Assembly: GCA_031269735.1 (NCBI GenBank)
Contig: JAISYS010000043.1
Span: forward strand, 1-46,255
Length of the DNA: 46,255 nt
Direction of reading: 5' to 3'
From: Candidatus Endomicrobiellum cubanum
Lineage (GTDB): Bacteria > Elusimicrobiota > Endomicrobiia > Endomicrobiales > Endomicrobiaceae
Part shown: positions 14,855-36,950 of the stretch, piece by piece
How positions within the stretch are numbered: position 1 is the stretch's first letter
How the letters are laid out: every line of letters starts with the position of its first letter
Translations under genes and position numbers: made by a program
The notes under the pieces: generated by a model
Told to the model about the DNA's origin: nothing
Database searches by the model: none
What the model saw: only the letters and a program-made list of their open reading frames with translations

Positions 14855-15924
14855 AATATAAAAATATAATTATCGCTTCAAGTGGTACAGGTGGACATAT
14901 TTATCCTGGTATTGCTTTAGCAAAAGAATTTGCAAAGAATGGTTATAATCCAATTTTTTTTATAACCAATAATGAAATTTCTATTGAGATTTTAAGAAAT
15001 AATGGTTTTAAATATATTTTGTTTAATCTTTCTGGAATGCCTAGAAAGATTTCTTTTTCGTTTTGGGTATTTTTAAGCAGGTTATTTTTGTCGTTTTTAA
15101 AAGCTTTAAAAAATATTGCGATATTAAAGCCAGTGTTTGTTATTGGTACTGGTGGTTATATATCTGTGCCTGCTCTTGTTGCAGCAAAAATTTTGAAAAA
15201 TAAAACTTTTATACATGAACAAAACACTATCCCAGGCAAAGCAAACATAGTTTTAAATAAAATAGTTGACAAAACTTTTATAAGTTTTGAATATTCAAGA
15301 AAATACTTTAAAAATGCTAATATTGTTTTTTCTGGGTATCCTGTAAGAGAAGAGATTTTGCATGCGTCTAAAACAAAAGCTTTGGAAAATTTAGATATAG
15401 AGAATGATATTTTTACAATTTTAGTTTTTGGTGGTAGTTTGGGTGCAGTAAAACTTAATGAGGTTGCTTGTAAAAGTCTATTAGATTTGTCCAAAAGCAA
15501 ACAAGTACAAGCAATACATATCACAGGTTACAAAAGTTATTCTAACATCTTAAAACTAGTAGAATTAAATAAAAATTATCAAGTTTTTAAATATATGCAT
15601 AATATATCTGATGCTTATGCTGTAAGCGATGTTGCTATATGTCGTTGTGGAGCAGGAACAGTTTTTGAAATAAAAGCTTTAAACAAGCCTGCAGTGTTTG
15701 TACCATATCCTTATGCAACTGACAATCATCAGTATTGGAATGCAAAAGAAGTAGAAGAAGATAATAAATTTATACTTATAGAAGAGAAAGATTTAACTGA
15801 AAAAAAGTTAAAAGAAACTATAGAAATTTTACTTTCAAATCCAAAAAAAAGTGGTGATATTTGTTTTTCTAAATTGCCTCAAACTTTAATATTTAAGGAA
15901 ATAATACAATGTATAAAATCTTAG
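14851..15924 (+). CDS. murG: Lipid II synthase MurG (GlcNAc transferase)
   Basis: MurG transfers GlcNAc from UDP-GlcNAc to lipid I at the inner face of the membrane. The 357-residue GT28 protein has the N-terminal GTGGHIYPGIALA loop, GTGGYISVPAL, HEQNTIPGKAN, the second glycine loop FGGSLGA and the donor-site RCGAGTVFEI with PYPYATDNHQYWNA. It is intact. murC and murB, which usually follow, are absent; a truncated surE overlaps its end. Confidence 0.95.
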   Translation: MKYKNIIIASSGTGGHIYPGIALAKEFAKNGYNPIFFITNNEISIEILRNNGFKYILFNLSGMPRKISFSFWVFLSRLFLSFLKALKNIAILKPVFVIGTGGYISVPALVAAKILKNKTFIHEQNTIPGKANIVLNKIVDKTFISFEYSRKYFKNANIVFSGYPVREEILHASKTKALENLDIENDIFTILVFGGSLGAVKLNEVACKSLLDLSKSKQVQAIHITGYKSYSNILKLVELNKNYQVFKYMHNISDAYAVSDVAICRCGAGTVFEIKALNKPAVFVPYPYATDNHQYWNAKEVEEDNKFILIEEKDLTEKKLKETIEILLSNPKKSGDICFSKLPQTLIFKEIIQCIKS

Positions 15925-16064
15925 TATCTAATGATGATGGTATAAATGGTCCAGGTCTTAAACCTCTTATAAAGGAATTATCTAAAATTGCAAAAGTCTA
16001 TGTAACCAAAACATCAGTAGTTCCACCACCCAGACCTCCCGTCACACCAGCAATGCCGTTTTAA
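15909..16064 (+). pseudogene. surE: surE N-terminal stump fused to a proline-rich peptide end
   Basis: The first 32 codons (MYKILVSNDDGINGPGLKPL...KVYV) are the start of SurE, a 5'-nucleotidase of about 250 residues; NDDG includes metal-binding Asp residues. At about 16003 the sequence switches to a proline-rich tail, TSVVPPPRPPVTPAMPF, then a stop. That tail and the DNA after it resemble the 3' end of the peptide gene at 18433-18582 (both give a PF-stop and TTTTAATTT). The surE part is dead. The tail looks like a second, truncated copy of the peptide core. Confidence 0.75.
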
Positions 16065-16108
16065 TTTTATGCGATGATAGATAAAAATGCCTTGATTATT
16101 TTACATCT

Positions 16109-16211: not shown

Positions 16212-17765
16212 TTACTCAAACTTACAGCCTATTTCTTTATTTCCTCCAAACGCTATTGCTAACAACCTTACTTCACTACTTGCATACTTCTCATAATATT
16301 TCCTCTCCTTTATCTGTTCCATCCCTTCTTTTAGCAGCTGCTCCACTTTTCTTCCTTTCCCATGCTTTATTTCCACTACTATTACTTCTTTCCCCTTTTT
16401 TAATACTACATCTATCCTTCCTTTATTTGTATTTACTTCCCCCTCTACTTCATACTCTACTGCTATCATTAACATCATAAACATCGAGTGATAATATGCT
16501 TCTAAGCTTATATGCAAATTATTCGGAATATTCGCAAACACTTTCCTTAAACTTTCTTCTAGTCCTTTGTCATCCTTATTTCTTACTTGCTCTAATAGTT
16601 TGCTTACTACACTATTTATTTCATTTGACTGTCTATTACTGTAATTCTCTATTACATTTGTTAAAAATGCTGTCCTTACTTCCATATTTGGAAAGTCTAT
16701 TGTATACTGCGGTCTATTATTTTCTAGCTCTTTCTTTTTTATTGTCAAATATCCTGTCTGAAACAATAATGCTATATTCTCTATGCTAGTATCGCCTCTG
16801 CCCCTTAAAGAGTTCGAATCTACTACTTTTGGCCCTATAAATAATTCTAAATCATCGCGCTGTCTTATTTGCTCTATTAAAAATGTCGGTGTGCCCGTCG
16901 CAAACCAATAACTCTCAAATTCTTTCTTTCTAAAAAACGCTAATGTCGAAAATGGATTATACACAAGCGTCTTTCCATCCCACGAATACCCGTTGTACCA
17001 TCTCTTTATTTCTGACAACAGTTTCTTAACTGTCATTTTATTTGCTTTAGTAGCATTTTGTATATACTCCTTAAAATTACTTTCTAATTCTTTTTGCGTA
17101 TATCCACATATTCCTGTGCTTTCTTCCTCCATAGTTATATCTATCAAATTATTTAACCCGGAAAATATAGACAGACCTGAAAACCTTGATACCCCTGTTA
17201 AAAATACAAACCTCAAATGCTCATCACTTGCCTTTATCACTTGATAAAAGTCATGTAATGTCCTTTTTACTTCGGGATATACTTCATTCTTACTAAGATT
17301 GTCTATCAATGGTTTGTCGTATTCATCTACCAAGATTACTACTCTGTCTCCCGCTTTCTCGTGTAATTTCTCTATTAACTGCGCAAATCTGCTTGGTAAA
17401 GCGCTGTTAGTTAATTCAACTTCATATTTTGATGCTAGTGAATTTACATAATCTAATAATGAATTTTCTAGCATGCTAGACGTCTTGTACCCTATCTCCG
17501 TAAAGTCTAAATGTATTACTGGATTTGTTTTTATCCAGTCCCATTTGTCATATATATATAATCCTTCAAATATCTTTTTATTGCCTTTGAATAACTCTTT
17601 GAATGTACTTATCAGCAATGATTTTCCAAAGCGGCGGGGTCGCGATAAAAAATATACACTACCACTATTTATCAAATTATATATATGTTCTGTCTTATCT
17701 ACATATATCTTGTTGTCTTCTATCAACTTTGAAAACGATTGTGTGCTTAATGGTAACTTTTTCAT
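16212..17765 (-). CDS. AAA-ATPase-like / PD-(D/E)XK nuclease family protein
   Basis: This 517-residue protein matches the PF09820 plus PF08011 architecture common in anaerobes and gut symbionts. The N-terminal ATPase region has VYFLSRPRRFGKSLLIST (P-loop variant, about 38-55) and a Walker B-like VVILVDEYDKP (about 143). The C-terminal PD-(D/E)XK fold shows GRIDVVLKKGKEVIVVEIKHGK (about 445-466). The biological role is unknown; such genes are often multicopy and may be mobile or defensive. The gene is intact although its surroundings are decayed, and it lies between two copies of the peptide 3' end, so it probably arrived by insertion. Confidence 0.85.
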   Translation of the reverse strand: MKKLPLSTQSFSKLIEDNKIYVDKTEHIYNLINSGSVYFLSRPRRFGKSLLISTFKELFKGNKKIFEGLYIYDKWDWIKTNPVIHLDFTEIGYKTSSMLENSLLDYVNSLASKYEVELTNSALPSRFAQLIEKLHEKAGDRVVILVDEYDKPLIDNLSKNEVYPEVKRTLHDFYQVIKASDEHLRFVFLTGVSRFSGLSIFSGLNNLIDITMEEESTGICGYTQKELESNFKEYIQNATKANKMTVKKLLSEIKRWYNGYSWDGKTLVYNPFSTLAFFRKKEFESYWFATGTPTFLIEQIRQRDDLELFIGPKVVDSNSLRGRGDTSIENIALLFQTGYLTIKKKELENNRPQYTIDFPNMEVRTAFLTNVIENYSNRQSNEINSVVSKLLEQVRNKDDKGLEESLRKVFANIPNNLHISLEAYYHSMFMMLMIAVEYEVEGEVNTNKGRIDVVLKKGKEVIVVEIKHGKGRKVEQLLKEGMEQIKERKYYEKYASSEVRLLAIAFGGNKEIGCKFE

Positions 17766-17848: not shown

Positions 17849-18031
17849 TTGACGTCCTACATTGCTACTTTTCTTTTATCTGTAATATTTATATTTATAC
17901 CTTTATCTCTTTTTATCTTTTCTCAAACAGCTTTTTATGCCCAACAGTTAAGATTCAATCCTTCTTTTTTGCCAAATTTTTTATTTGTTTTATATTATTT
18001 TGGAACACATAATATGTTTTTATTATATTAA
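17849..18031 (+). other. Possible remnant with signal-peptide-like start
   Basis: A 60-codon TTG-initiated frame starts with a hydrophobic segment (YIATFLLSVIFIFIPLSLFIF) then FYAQQLRFNPSFLPNF, which resembles a signal peptide and mature start. No ribosome site or family match is evident and it stops in AT-rich sequence. It may be a relic or a chance frame. Confidence 0.15.
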
Positions 18032-18056
18032 TTAGCTTTCTAAATAATATAATATA

Positions 18057-18309
18057 TTATCTTGTAATTATCAATACAATCTGCAAGCTCAGCTTGCTAA
18101 TGCAAGAGTCGCTGTTGTTTACGAAAGCAAAGCAAAAAAAGAAGTTATATCTTGCCGTTAAGTCTTTTAAAAAATAGGGAAAGAAGTTGCAACATACAGG
18201 GTCGTTGTTTGTCTTTTCGATTCTTTTTATCTTTGTGGACAAGTCGGCAAAGCAGTAAATAACAGAAATAAGTTTATGGGAGTAGAATTAGTAAAATTAA
18301 GCAATGAAA
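18057..18309 (+). other. Unassigned, apparently decayed stretch
   Basis: Short open segments in one frame read QAQLANARVAVVYESKAKK and, after two stops, VNNRNKFMGVELVKLSNEK. They look like protein but I cannot place them in a family. I see no RNA gene, repeat or clear promoter. The stretch separates the ATPase gene from the IS30 remnant. Confidence 0.25.
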
Positions 18310-18432
18310 AAATACAGGAGAATAAGCAGCGGAGCGCAATGAAATAGAAATAGTAGTGCGATTATCCGCTATGTCTTGCCTAAAGAAACTAATTTTGATA
18401 CCATAACAGATGACGAACTTGCAAAAGTGGAA
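18310..18432 (+). mobile_element. IS30-family transposase C-terminal remnant
   Basis: The frame reads NRNSSAIIRYVLPKETNF then DTITDDELAKVE. This follows the IS30 C-terminal consensus NENTNGLIRxYLPKGTxF...TDEELxxVE up to the point where the IS30 NNRPRK motif should begin. A TGA interrupts it near 18340. The rest of the transposase is missing. It is fused in frame to the peptide gene that follows, so the element or a deletion replaced that gene's 5' end. Confidence 0.6.
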
Positions 18433-18582
18433 ATTTTACATCTTACAAAGTTAGATTATGAAGATTACAAGTTAAATGACGATGAATGTGCTTGTGCAGG
18501 TTATGAAGGATATTGTGCCACATTAGTTTCGCCACCACGACCCCAACCTTCCCTTCCACCACCAAGTCCACGGCCATTTTAA
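18376..18582 (+). CDS. Proline-rich RiPP precursor-like peptide, 5' end replaced by IS30
   Basis: From about 18433 the frame encodes roughly 49 residues. An acidic leader-like part (TKLDYEDYKLNDDE) is followed by a Cys/Gly/Tyr patch (CACAGYEGYC) and a proline-rich end (LVSPPRPQPSLPPPSPRPF). It lies directly before a radical SAM/SPASM maturase and an ABC exporter, the standard layout of a RiPP locus, and a hairpin separates it from the maturase. A second copy of the core end lies at 16003-16064. The native start is lost to the IS30 fusion; the TTG at 18376 is only the computed start. I know of no named RiPP family with this core. The precursor role is inference. Confidence 0.55.
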   Translation: MPKETNFDTITDDELAKVEILHLTKLDYEDYKLNDDECACAGYEGYCATLVSPPRPQPSLPPPSPRPF

Positions 18583-18597
18583 TTTGTAGATATTATG

Positions 18598-18638
18598 ATA
18601 AATGCCTCATGGTGCTTTCTGTACTATGAGGCATTTAT
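18598..18638 (+). terminator. 13 bp hairpin between peptide gene and maturase
   Basis: ATAAATGCCTCAT (18598-18610) and ATGAGGCATTTAT (18626-18638) form a perfect 13 bp stem with a 15 nt loop. No T-run follows, so it is more likely a transcript-stabilising or partial-readthrough hairpin than a full terminator. Such hairpins are common between short peptide genes and their downstream enzymes. Confidence 0.6.
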
Positions 18639-18652
18639 TCAGGAGATTGTAT

Positions 18653-19988
18653 ATGCAAAAAATTAAGATTTCTCAGTATAATTTTGTTGTTAATTTAGAT
18701 AGAGATAATTTATTGCTTTATAATAGTAAAAATAATAATTTAGTTAAATTAAAACTTTGATTATGTAATAAAAGTCAATAGTAACAGTATTGCTAATTTA
18801 GGAATTGATAATGATTTTAAAAAACTTTGTGAATTAGGTTTTTTTGTAAATTGTAATAGAGATGAAAAAAATGAAGTTATAATTAATTTTGAGAAAAATA
18901 GATATTATTATAATAGCCTAAATTTGACTATAGCGGTTACAAATGAATGTAACTTGAATTGTATATTTTGTTATGTAAATAAAAAGAAAATATATAAGTT
19001 TTCATTTGAAACTCATAAGAATATTATTGGTTTTATAAAGTATTATTATGAAAAATATAAAATTAAAAAATTATTTATAACATGGACGGGAGGAGAACCA
19101 CTAGTTGAATTCGATAATATTGTAAAGTTGTCTGAAGAAATTATTAACTTTTGTTGTATAAATGATATTAGATTTTGAGTCTAACATTATAACAAATGCT
19201 GTTTTATTAAATGAAACTGTTATAAAAAAATTAAAAGAAATAAATATTACTAATATACAAATTTCTATAGAGCCAACAGAAATTTTAGATTTACTGAGTA
19301 GACCTATTAAAAATACAAATAAATCAAATTTTAATAATACTTATGAGAACATAAAAAATGTAGCTGGATTAATACCAATTGTTTTAAGAATTGCCTTGTC
19401 AAAAAGAAATTTCACTCAAATTGTCAACTTTGCTATAAGATTAAAAAACGACAATTTATTATCCAATAATGTAAACTTCGCTTTAGGACCTTTACATATC
19501 CCTTACCTAAATTCAAATTTAGATTTTAGTATTCTAAGCGATGTCTTAGATTCTAGAGATTATTCTAGAATATATTTTAGTATTTATGAGGAATTACTTA
19601 ATAAAAACATCATTAAATTTACTCCTTATCCATCATTATATAATGAATGCGGAGCTTATAAAAGCAATGTGTTTAGCGGGGATGCTAAAGGAGATATTTT
19701 AAATGTTTTGAAAATGTATTTGAAATGTCAGAATCTATAGGAAATATTAGAAATAAAAATATAAGCTTAATTTATAAACGTACCGACTGGATAAAGAAAG
19801 CTTTTGATTTTGAGAAATTAGAATGTTATCATTGTAAACTATTGCCAGTATGCAAAGGTGGATGTAATATGGTAAGGAGATTTAAAAATGAGAGTAATAT
19901 AGGAAATTTTTTAGAACTGGGTTGTAATGAATGGAAGTATGAGAAAGGATTGAAGTTATACTATAAAAGTATAAAAGAAAATGCCTAA
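18653..19988 (+). pseudogene. Radical SAM/SPASM peptide maturase, three frameshifts
   Basis: The start is ATG 18653 behind AGGAG. Joining frames gives a protein of about 445 residues. An N-terminal peptide-binding-like region comes first, then the radical SAM core with CNLNCIFCY (CxxxCxxC, from 18948) and TWTGGEP, then a SPASM domain (NECGAYKSN, an FKCF region, CYHCKLLPVCKGGC, and a final Cys in LGCNEW). Such enzymes use SAM radicals to crosslink or epimerise peptides. Frame breaks lie near 18757, 19176 and 19698; two look like single-base losses in T or A runs. All iron-sulfur cysteines survive across frames, so inactivation is recent, or the breaks are sequence errors. It overlaps the exporter gene by 8 bp. 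Confidence 0.82.
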
Positions 19989-21600
19989 AATTAATATTAT
20001 ACTTAGTCTTTTTAAAAATTACAAAATAGAAGTTTTGCAGTATTTTTGTATTGACATTTTGCTGAAATTTATAAATATAGTAACTGCTTTTTTTATGATG
20101 ATTTTTGTAGACACAATTAATATTAGCACTAGTTTTATTTTGGCTTTTGTGATTTTATATATTTCTGTATTAATTTTTAGTTCAATTTCTACGTTATTTA
20201 AAACGCTTACTTTATATTTATTAGAAAACAAAGTTTTGTTTGATTTTAGAAAAATAATTTTAACAAAATTCTTAAACTCTAAATACGACAGGAGAAGTAC
20301 TTTCAATAAAGGGCCATATTTGTCTCAGAGAATCTTAAGTGACACAGGGCTTGTGAATAGTTTATTTATAGAGCCGATAGCAAAAAGTCTAAGTTCAATA
20401 ATTTTTTTAAGTATCCTACTGCCAATTTTTTTACAATTTAATTTTTTAATTATTTTATTAGTTATTTTAAGTGCTGTTTTCCCTTACCTATTTTCTTCTT
20501 TTTTTAATAGAAAAAATCGGTATTTTACATATAAATATCAAGAAGCATATGCTTTATATTCTTCAAAATTATCGGACACGATAGATTCTACTAAAGAAAT
20601 CAAACTTTTTAATATATATCAAAAAGAAATAGATAAATTTGATTCTGCTACTGAAAATCTTATTTCAATGAATACAAATGCCCTTTTTTGGGGATATACA
20701 TCTGGACAATTTAGTGTAGCTTTACAACATGTTATTATTGGAATTTTGCTTGGATTTTTAGGGTATCAAGTTCAGGAAAAAGTTATTAGTTTAGGTCAAG
20801 CAATCTTTATTTGTGGTATATCTAATAATCTTTTTTACGTTATTAGTGATTTTTGGCAATTTTATTTTTTAACCAAAAACTCTAAAGTACCTTGAAAAAG
20901 AATTAAAAAAATATTGCTTGTAGAGCATGAAAATGAGAGTTTTAGAAATAATGGATTTAACTACAAAATTAAAAAGATTGAAAATATAATCTTTAAACAT
21001 GTTGTAGTAGAAAAAAAAGATAAGGTTATATTGAGAAATTTAAATTTTAAAGTTAATTTGAATGATAAAGTTGCTTTAATTGGGCGCACTGGAGCTGGTA
21101 AAACTACAGTTTTAAATCTAATGCTATTTTTTGATAGGATATCATCTGGGGAGATTTTAATAAATGATATAGATTTATATGATATAAATATTAAGAACCT
21201 TAGGTCTAAAATATCATATTTTACGCAAGATTCTTTTTTATTTAATAGAACTATAAAAAAAAATATTTTATTATATTTAGATTATAATAATCCGATAATA
21301 TGTCAAAAATATTTAGAAGTTTTAAAAATATGTGAACTTGACAATTTGGATGATAGCAAAGTTGTAGGCAATAGAGGAGTTTTTGTGTCAGGGGGAGAAA
21401 AACAAAGGATAGCTTTAGCAAGATGTTTAATGAAAGATTTTGATGTTTTAGTGTTAGATGAATTTGGAAATTCTATTAACGAAAATATGGGAATAGAAAT
21501 TTATAAGAACTTAATTGATTTTTATAAAGACAAGATTATTATTGCAGTTTCTCACAGAGCAAATATTGCTAATTTATTTCAAAAAAAGATTCAATTATAA
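19981..21600 (+). pseudogene. Peptide-type ABC exporter (TMD-NBD) with one in-frame stop
   Basis: A single frame of 540 codons encodes an exporter half-transporter. About six membrane spans occupy residues 1-300. The NBD has Walker A GRTGAGKTT, Q-loop FTQDSF, signature VSGGEKQR, Walker B VLVLDEFGN and H-loop SHR. Only a TGA at 20893-20895, between the two domains, breaks it. The flanking frame is unchanged, which indicates one point mutation rather than an indel. No C39 peptidase domain is present. Its place after the maturase suggests export of the modified peptide. Reinitiation at 20914 could still make a free NBD. Confidence 0.85.
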
Positions 21601-21616
21601 AATTTTTGGAGAGCAA

Positions 21617-21934
21617 GTGATCCAAAAGAAGCTATTTTTTCTAAATAATTTTGTTATAGCAGTATCTATAGTTTTTATGATTATTTTTTTTATTCCAATA
21701 TTTAGAGTTGATTTACCATTAGATTATAAAATTAATGATAGTAAGTTGATAATAAATATAGAAAGATTAGATATAGAAAAAGATTTATTTGTAAACTTTA
21801 AAAATAATGAAATGATTATAATAAGTCGGGATAATGGTAATTTAAAAATTGATAAATCTGATATTTGTAATAATCAAATTATTTTAGATATACAGCAATT
21901 GAACATAGAAAATGAGTTGAAAAGTTTATTATAA
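21617..21934 (+). CDS. Small membrane-anchored protein of the peptide locus
   Basis: A GTG at 21617 behind TTGGAGAG starts a 105-residue protein. One membrane span (about residues 10-31) is followed by an extracytoplasmic region rich in Ile, Asn and Asp with short beta-like repeats (LIINIERLDIEK, NGNLKIDKSD, ILDIQQLNIE). I do not recognise the family. Position right after the exporter suggests a transport accessory, like a short membrane-fusion-type protein, or an immunity protein. Both are guesses. It appears intact. Confidence 0.55.
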   Translation: MIQKKLFFLNNFVIAVSIVFMIIFFIPIFRVDLPLDYKINDSKLIINIERLDIEKDLFVNFKNNEMIIISRDNGNLKIDKSDICNNQIILDIQQLNIENELKSLL

Positions 21935-36741: not shown

Positions 36742-36950
36742 TAACCTTGTGCACATAATTCTTGTAAATTTTTTAACAAGGCAAGGCAAGGCAAGGCAAG
36801 GCAAGGCAAGGCAAGGCAAGGCAAGGCAAGGCAAGGCAAGGCAAGGCAAGGACATAGGGTTTATCGTGTGATAAACACAAGTTTTCTAATGCAGCAGAAT
36901 CCAAAATGGAGCACTAAGGATATAAGTTAAGGGTTTTAATAGTAGACCCT
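36742..36950 (-). repeat. Full-length dispersed element, expanded by a 5 bp repeat
   Basis: The reverse strand aligns over its length with the element at 43042-43191. The shared core includes AACTTGTGTTTAT and ACGATAAACCCTATG, then CCTTGCCTTG and AAAAAATTTA. The outer repeat AGGGTTTTAATAGTAGACCCT is at 36930-36950. It is longer than the roughly 150 bp relatives because of the tandem repeat at 36781-36850. It lies between the binding protein and the HAD gene. It encodes no protein and so resembles a MITE. Confidence 0.75.
36781..36850. repeat. Tandem 5 bp repeat, (GCAAG)14
   Basis: Fourteen perfect tandem copies of GCAAG, preceded by one imperfect copy. The related elements at 40110 and 43042 have only one to three similar units at the same place, so the array grew inside the element. 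Copy number probably varies by strand slippage. The minus-strand LPCLA peptide frame here is an artefact of the repeat. Confidence 0.97.

What the first reader, a model, noticed from the sequence alone, without database searches (positions are those of the whole stretch)
18376..21934. Candidate undescribed RiPP locus with a proline-rich core
A short peptide gene is followed by a radical SAM/SPASM enzyme, an ABC exporter and a small membrane protein, with overlaps or short gaps. The peptide has an acidic leader-like part, a CACAGYEGYC patch and a proline-rich end (SPPRPQPSLPPPSPRPF). Known radical SAM RiPP precursors usually carry Cys, Tyr/Trp or repeat cores; a PRP-rich tail recalls proline-rich antimicrobial peptides of insects. 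I know of no named RiPP family with this combination. The system here is damaged, so a functional version should be sought in relatives.
Basis: partly seen in the sequence, partly recalled or inferred. Interest (0 to 1): 0.85.

Follow-up and report, generated by a model that had tools for sequence, protein, structure and literature searches.

The report
Genus-specific radical-SAM peptide operon, decaying
This is the broken remains of an operon that made, chemically modified and exported a small cysteine- and proline-containing peptide; related copies exist only in one genus of Endomicrobium-like bacteria, and they look as if they have moved between species before falling apart.

Summary
The window carries a precursor gene (best start GTG 18427, end 18582), a terminator-like hairpin, a radical SAM/SPASM maturase (three frameshifts), a peptidase-less ABC exporter (one in-frame stop) and a ~120-aa one-TM protein (one frameshift). 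Relatives settle it: 7 of 42 genomes of the genus encode the same precursor family, MEILxVxKxDxExYELxxAxC[A/S]CAGYEG[Y/H/Q]CxxLV plus a hypervariable, proline-rich tail of 7-37 residues. In all six loci where both are visible it lies just upstream of the same maturase, with a hairpin between. Maturase and exporter evolved under purifying selection (dN/dS 0.12-0.24). The maturase matches no named family at its cut-off (nearest TIGR04463, Clo7bot) and the precursor matches none. Copies lie in several chromosomal contexts and are far less diverged at synonymous sites than housekeeping genes, implying horizontal movement. No complete intact operon was found on one contig. New precursor/maturase family within a known kind.

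The parts
18427..18582 (+). RiPP precursor gene, GTG start; VEILHLTKLDYEDYKLNDDECACAGYEGYCATLVSPPRPQPSLPPPSPRPF
   Evidence: homologues in 6 other genomes of the genus; alignment A2
18487..18516 (+). conserved motif CACAGYEGYC, with an internal CX3E (CAGYE)
   Evidence: three Cys and AGYEG kept in all six copies that reach the third Cys; the seventh (G020) is cut after GY
18529..18579 (+). hypervariable Pro-rich tail of the precursor
   Evidence: length 7-37 aa and sequence differ in every relative; Pro-richness kept
18597..18639 (+). terminator-like hairpin between precursor and maturase (19-bp stem)
   Evidence: MFE -28.3 kcal/mol, z -6.5; non-homologous hairpins at the same place in five relatives
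18653..19988 (+). radical SAM/SPASM maturase pseudogene, three frameshifts
   Evidence: open homologues in G005, G025 and G036 as far as visible
19981..21600 (+). ABC exporter (ABC_membrane + ABC_tran, no C39 peptidase domain found) with one in-frame TGA at 20893-20895
   Evidence: intact homologues in G039, G010, G017, G020, G033
21617..21934 (+). small membrane protein (one N-terminal hydrophobic helix), C-terminus lost to a frameshift
   Evidence: homologues of 119-122 aa in G039, G010, G017, G020, G033
16017..16098 (+). remnant of a second precursor gene: Pro-rich tail (VVPPPRPPVTPAMPF) and start of the downstream region, fused to truncated surE
   Evidence: alignment to the main copy scores 35 versus a maximum of 28 in 2000 shuffles; homology to surE of relatives ends at 16016
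15909..16016 (+). truncated surE, left flank of the insertion (uvrB is the right flank, from 22075)
   Evidence: ftsW, surE and uvrB lie close together, without the operon, in G017 and G040

Best explanation
This is a degraded operon for a ribosomally made, post-translationally modified peptide (RiPP), one copy of an undescribed family confined, as far as seen, to one Endomicrobium-like genus. Proposed working in an intact copy: (1) the ~51-71 aa precursor is transcribed in excess over the enzymes because of the hairpin after it (inferred). (2) The maturase, by its radical SAM CX3CX2C motif and full seven-Cys SPASM pattern, binds the short leader (MEILxVxKxDxExYELxx) and installs radical cross-links in C-x-CAGYEG-x-C. 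The most likely bond is a Cys-to-Glu thioether in the CX3E pair, as made by PapB (inferred, about 40%). (3) The ABC exporter secretes the product; no peptidase is encoded here, so leader removal, if any, is done elsewhere. (4) The fast-evolving one-TM protein is an accessory or immunity protein (inferred). (5) The hypervariable Pro-rich tail is the target- or recognition-determining part, or a spacer (inferred). A bacteriocin-like or signalling role fits the horizontal movement, rapid tail turnover and frequent loss. In this window the system is dead.
For: Precursor family next to the same maturase in six of six testable loci. Rad-SAM and SPASM motifs intact in relatives. dN/dS 0.12-0.22 for maturase, 0.15-0.24 for exporter, 0.16-0.56 for TM protein. 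Hairpins between precursor and maturase in six loci, four of them beyond all 200 shuffles. PapB makes Cys-Asp/Glu thioethers in CX3D/E (PMC9413430), and the maturase matches the PapB model along its length at 105 bits, below the cut-off. Similar gene order in the Clo7bot locus and Sarcina plasmid p5.
Against: No complete intact operon was found on one contig, so function in any living strain is not shown. The maturase is closer to TIGR04463, Clo7bot, FlmE/OhkG and CefB, whose chemistry I could not establish here, than to PapB. Structure predictions were too poor to use (pLDDT 50 for both). Bacteriocin versus signal versus other role is not testable from sequence.
Confidence: 0.85

Rival explanations
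1. The short ORF is a regulatory leader peptide: ribosomes stall on its Pro-rich end and so control the terminator in front of the maturase genes (attenuation). It is not a substrate.
For: A Pro-rich end lies shortly before a hairpin in all six loci.
Against: The best-conserved part is C-x-CAGYEG-x-C-xxLV, not the Pro codons, and the tail shrinks to seven residues in G040. Hairpin stems are not homologous between loci; an alternative antiterminator pairing was not tested in depth. Maturases of this class act on adjacent short peptides (established knowledge).
Confidence: 0.06
2. The peptide is a substrate but the product is a redox or metal cofactor or chelator, like PQQ or mycofactocin, rather than an antimicrobial or signal.
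For: The conserved Cys residues with Y-E are cross-linkable side chains, and SPASM enzymes include PqqE-like maturases.
Against: The operon has an exporter, no oxidoreductase partner and no protease. The tail is hypervariable, and the locus is patchy and freely lost, unlike a cofactor pathway.
Confidence: 0.12
3. The short ORF is a chance open frame beside a decayed maturase, and the Cys- and Pro-rich pattern is accidental.
For: The window copy lacks the usual start region and the genes downstream are broken.
Against: Six related genomes encode the same peptide, E down to 5e-32 with the profile, mostly with a ribosome-binding site, and five of them in the same place.
Confidence: 0.01

Closest known systems
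TIGR04463 family radical SAM/SPASM RiPP maturases
   Same: Best NCBIfam match, along nearly the whole protein (184.6 bits); paired with Cys-containing peptides
   Different: Far below the 525-bit cut-off; separate long branch in a tree; precursor matches no model; the example locus has a large CefA peptide and a C-methyltransferase
Clo7bot system (CtpM, Paraclostridium plasmid)
   Same: Short Cys peptides upstream of a SPASM maturase, then an ABC transporter; 175.8 bits
   Different: Several tandem peptides, most starting MKFIKKP, with many Cys and no Pro tail; a peptidase-like protein (by eye) lies between maturase and transporter; cut-off 600 bits not met
PapA/PapB ranthipeptides
   Same: CX3D/E cross-link motif (PMC9413430); CAGYE here is CX3E; maturase aligns along the PapB model (105.5 bits)
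   Different: Six repeated motifs in PapA versus one here; cut-off 340 not met; extra N-terminal ~85 residues here; no chemistry tested
Sarcina sp. JB2 plasmid p5 and p8 loci
   Same: Tiny ORF, terminator-like repeat, SPASM maturase, then ABC (p5) or MFS (p8) transporter; p8 maturase 31% identical
   Different: 20-residue peptides without the motif or a Pro tail
Insect proline-rich antimicrobial peptides
   Same: Proline-rich, PRP-containing tails in some copies
   Different: No homology tested or claimed; here the tail is attached to a Cys-containing head; no activity data

Membership tests
Radical SAM/SPASM RiPP system (general kind) | Maturase with CX3CX2C radical SAM motif and SPASM Cys pattern | tested here: met
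   CNLNCIFC; C-X13-G-X4-C, C-X2-C-X5-C-X3-C and a last Cys in relatives; PF04055 and TIGR04085 above cut-off
Radical SAM/SPASM RiPP system (general kind) | Short precursor gene co-located with the maturase and conserved with it | tested here: met
   six of six testable loci
Radical SAM/SPASM RiPP system (general kind) | Peptide actually modified and secreted | not testable with these tools
   needs expression and mass spectrometry
TIGR04463 maturase family | Score above the curated 525-bit cut-off | tested here: not met
   184.6 bits over 427 residues
Clo7bot (CtpM) family | Maturase above 600 bits | tested here: not met
   175.8 bits
Clo7bot (CtpM) family | Precursors of the Clo7bot Cys-rich kind | tested here: not met
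   no NCBIfam match for the precursor at E <= 1; different sequence
PapB ranthipeptide family | Maturase above 340 bits | tested here: not met
   105.5 bits
PapB ranthipeptide family | CX3D/E motif in the precursor | tested here: met
   CAGYE in all seven copies
PapB ranthipeptide family | Cys S to Asp/Glu side-chain carbon thioether | not testable with these tools
   chemistry
Proline-rich antimicrobial peptides | Proline-rich peptide that acts on bacteria | not testable with these tools
   tail is Pro-rich but of variable sequence; no activity data

The most novel reading that the evidence does not exclude
A new RiPP architecture: a small radical-cross-linked Cys/Glu head joined to a free, rapidly diversifying proline-rich tail that determines the target, carried by an operon passed between lineages of Endomicrobium-like bacteria, with tail turnover driven by competition.
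Probability: 0.2. Interest if true: 0.8.

Novelty: new variant of a known kind. Interest (0 to 1): 0.5.

Why it matters
It gives a new precursor/maturase pair with a conserved CX3E-containing motif and a natural series of at least six diverged tails, which is testable in E. coli. It also suggests horizontal traffic of a peptide operon among Endomicrobium-like bacteria, a group known (background knowledge) largely as endosymbionts of termite-gut flagellates, where gene exchange is thought to be limited. It adds an Elusimicrobiota-restricted branch to radical SAM peptide maturases; I found no paper on such a system in this group.

Tried and rejected
Structure prediction of the TM protein (pLDDT 50) and maturase (pLDDT 50): too poor, so no fold searches were run. 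Precursor against Pfam, NCBIfam and plasmids: nothing significant. Viral contigs: one distant 25% hit. Phage collection: the best hit (H21) is an unverified fecal scaffold with agr-like ORFs, probably not a phage. The tree of the maturase with other families is weakly resolved apart from the genus clade and the other Elusimicrobiota clade.

Full report
Observation. The window region 18376-21934 was read directly and with ORF listing. Domain searches place a radical SAM core, a SPASM domain and an ABC exporter in the pieces. Mapping relatives onto the window by tblastn shows the precursor in one open frame, the maturase in frames 2, 3, 1, 3 (three frameshifts), the exporter colinear in one frame with a single stop (TGA, 20893-20895), and the last small protein with one late frameshift. 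The flanking genes ftsW, murG and uvrB are open at normal length, so this is local decay and not poor sequence.

Precursor family. The 68-residue ORF finds relatives in six other genomes of the genus (E 9e-18 to 1e-5; profile E down to 5e-32): G025, G036, G010, G039, G040 and G020. The aligned copies read MEILxVxKxDxExYELxxAxC[A/S]CAGYEG[Y/H/Q]CxxLV followed by a tail. Tails: SPPRPQPSLPPPSPRPF (window), APPPPIWVPPPMPRPFL (G025), APVPVPFPPFNPFPFPF (G036), PERPKPKPNPPPRPKPNPPPMPMPPPYHPPPFGPPFG (G010), VPPPRPF (G040), EQQKEIQQSRWQPPAAQPAPPPVIRVGL (G039). So the Cys/Gly/Tyr/Glu motif is conserved and the tail is not, except in being Pro-rich. G039 has a stop in the leader, G040 a frameshift in the leader, and G020 is cut inside the motif and runs into the next gene, an scpB-like ORF.

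Start of the window copy. Relatives start at MEIL (M-Y-K-V-L in G039), in several cases after sequences such as AGGAGGTAAGT. The window has GTG GAA ATT TTA at 18427 with no such site. DNA upstream of 18427 matches only scattered, unrelated stretches of other genomes.

Operon. In six of six loci where both can be seen, precursor and maturase are adjacent with a hairpin between; the stems differ in sequence (z-scores -6.5, -6.3, -4.4, -3.1, -2.0, -1.7). Where the 3' part is intact it continues with an exporter of about 535 residues and a 119-122 residue one-TM protein. Both are intact in G039, G010, G017, G020 and G033. Maturase states: G005 open from residue ~9 but missing its start and its precursor; G025 and G036 open up to the contig end; G017 open from the contig edge to its end codon; G039 one stop; G010 one frameshift; others worse. 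No complete intact operon on one contig was found.

Selection. Nei-Gojobori dN/dS is 0.12-0.22 for maturase pairs, 0.15-0.24 for exporter pairs and 0.16-0.56 for the TM protein. Maturase and exporter were thus under clear constraint until recently; the TM protein evolves faster, as an immunity or accessory protein would.

Distribution and movement. Maturase traces at E <= 1e-20 occur in 13 of 96 genomes of the class, all in the one genus. Across 295 sampled genomes of the phylum, only distant TIGR04463-like enzymes (at most 112 bits) appear elsewhere, and the three loci I read there have no such precursor nearby. Neighbours differ: surE/uvrB in the window, panD in G039, lpxB in G040 and G017, priA in G010 and G032, an oxoacid:ferredoxin oxidoreductase in G025, a MerR-like gene in G005 and G014 (gene names by eye). 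ftsW, surE and uvrB lie close together without the operon in G017 and G040, so the window copy is an insertion there. Synonymous divergence disagrees with housekeeping genes: G005-G025 maturase dS 0.18 against uvrB 2.36; G005-G039 0.61 against 1.95 (uvrB) and 1.36 (ftsW); window-G005 0.73 against 2.28 and 2.19. The sister pair G017-G040, which shares the lpxB site, agrees: 0.21 against 0.23 and 0.19. The window maturase is no closer to the copies of its nearest relatives (G040 0.94, G017 1.11) than to distant ones. Horizontal movement with repeated loss explains this; large dS values are near saturation and rough, and only two marker genes were used.

Second copy. At 16017-16098 the surE gene breaks off and a second Pro-rich tail with similar downstream DNA follows (score 35 against a shuffle maximum of 28 in 2000). 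The site therefore held at least two precursor genes.

Mechanism. Shown: gene content, motifs, conservation, selection, hairpins. Inferred from family knowledge: the maturase makes a radical cross-link, the exporter secretes the product. The specific proposal, a Cys-Glu thioether in CAGYE, rests on the invariant CX3E spacing, the PapB precedent for CX3D/E (PMC9413430) and a full-length but sub-threshold PapB match; I give it about 40%. The role of the tail and the biological activity are unknown; a bacteriocin-like or signalling peptide is my preferred guess because of the exporter, the fast tail turnover, the mobility and the frequent loss.

Relation to known systems. The nearest models (TIGR04463 184.6 bits, Clo7bot 175.8, FlmE/OhkG 159.4, CefB 155.0, PapB 105.5) are all missed by wide margins, and the genus maturases form their own long branch. 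It works like these systems but is not a member of any named one. Solved structures related by sequence are few and distant (5wgg, 6efn, 9gm3). Paper searches found nothing on such a system in this group; most subscription papers are not held.

Noticed in passing
L061 (Sarcina sp. JB2 plasmid p8) about 2350-2415; L064 (plasmid p5) 3661-3723: Unannotated 20-residue ORFs (MKLIGKSGLEVDSICGVQIG and MIILNEKKPLVLIDKCPARA) each followed by a terminator-like repeat and a SPASM maturase plus transporter: candidate tiny RiPPs.
   Followed up: partly
L074 5535-5642 and 5700-5807: Two small Cys-rich ORFs (...ECSHHVGGLCCLSGVCCKEEK; ...ECSHFAGACCLSGVCCKEER) right after a TIGR04463-like maturase in another Elusimicrobiota family.
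   Followed up: no
window 16212-17765, minus strand: A 517-residue intact ORF that looks like the AAA-ATPase/PD-(D/E)XK type (by eye) lies between the two precursor copies.
   Followed up: no
window 17954-18194: Short stretches of this intergenic DNA recur (78-80% identical) at several places in genome G009, suggesting a dispersed repeat or a decayed gene family.
   Followed up: no
window 36773-36913, minus strand: Open frame with a tandem repeat read as (ALPCL)n, apparently from a 15-base repeat.
   Followed up: no
L111 (MT836101.1, recorded as Bacteriophage sp.): A SPASM maturase 32% identical to the family beside agr-like and helix-turn-helix ORFs (by eye); the record looks more like a bacterial fragment than a phage.
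   Followed up: partly
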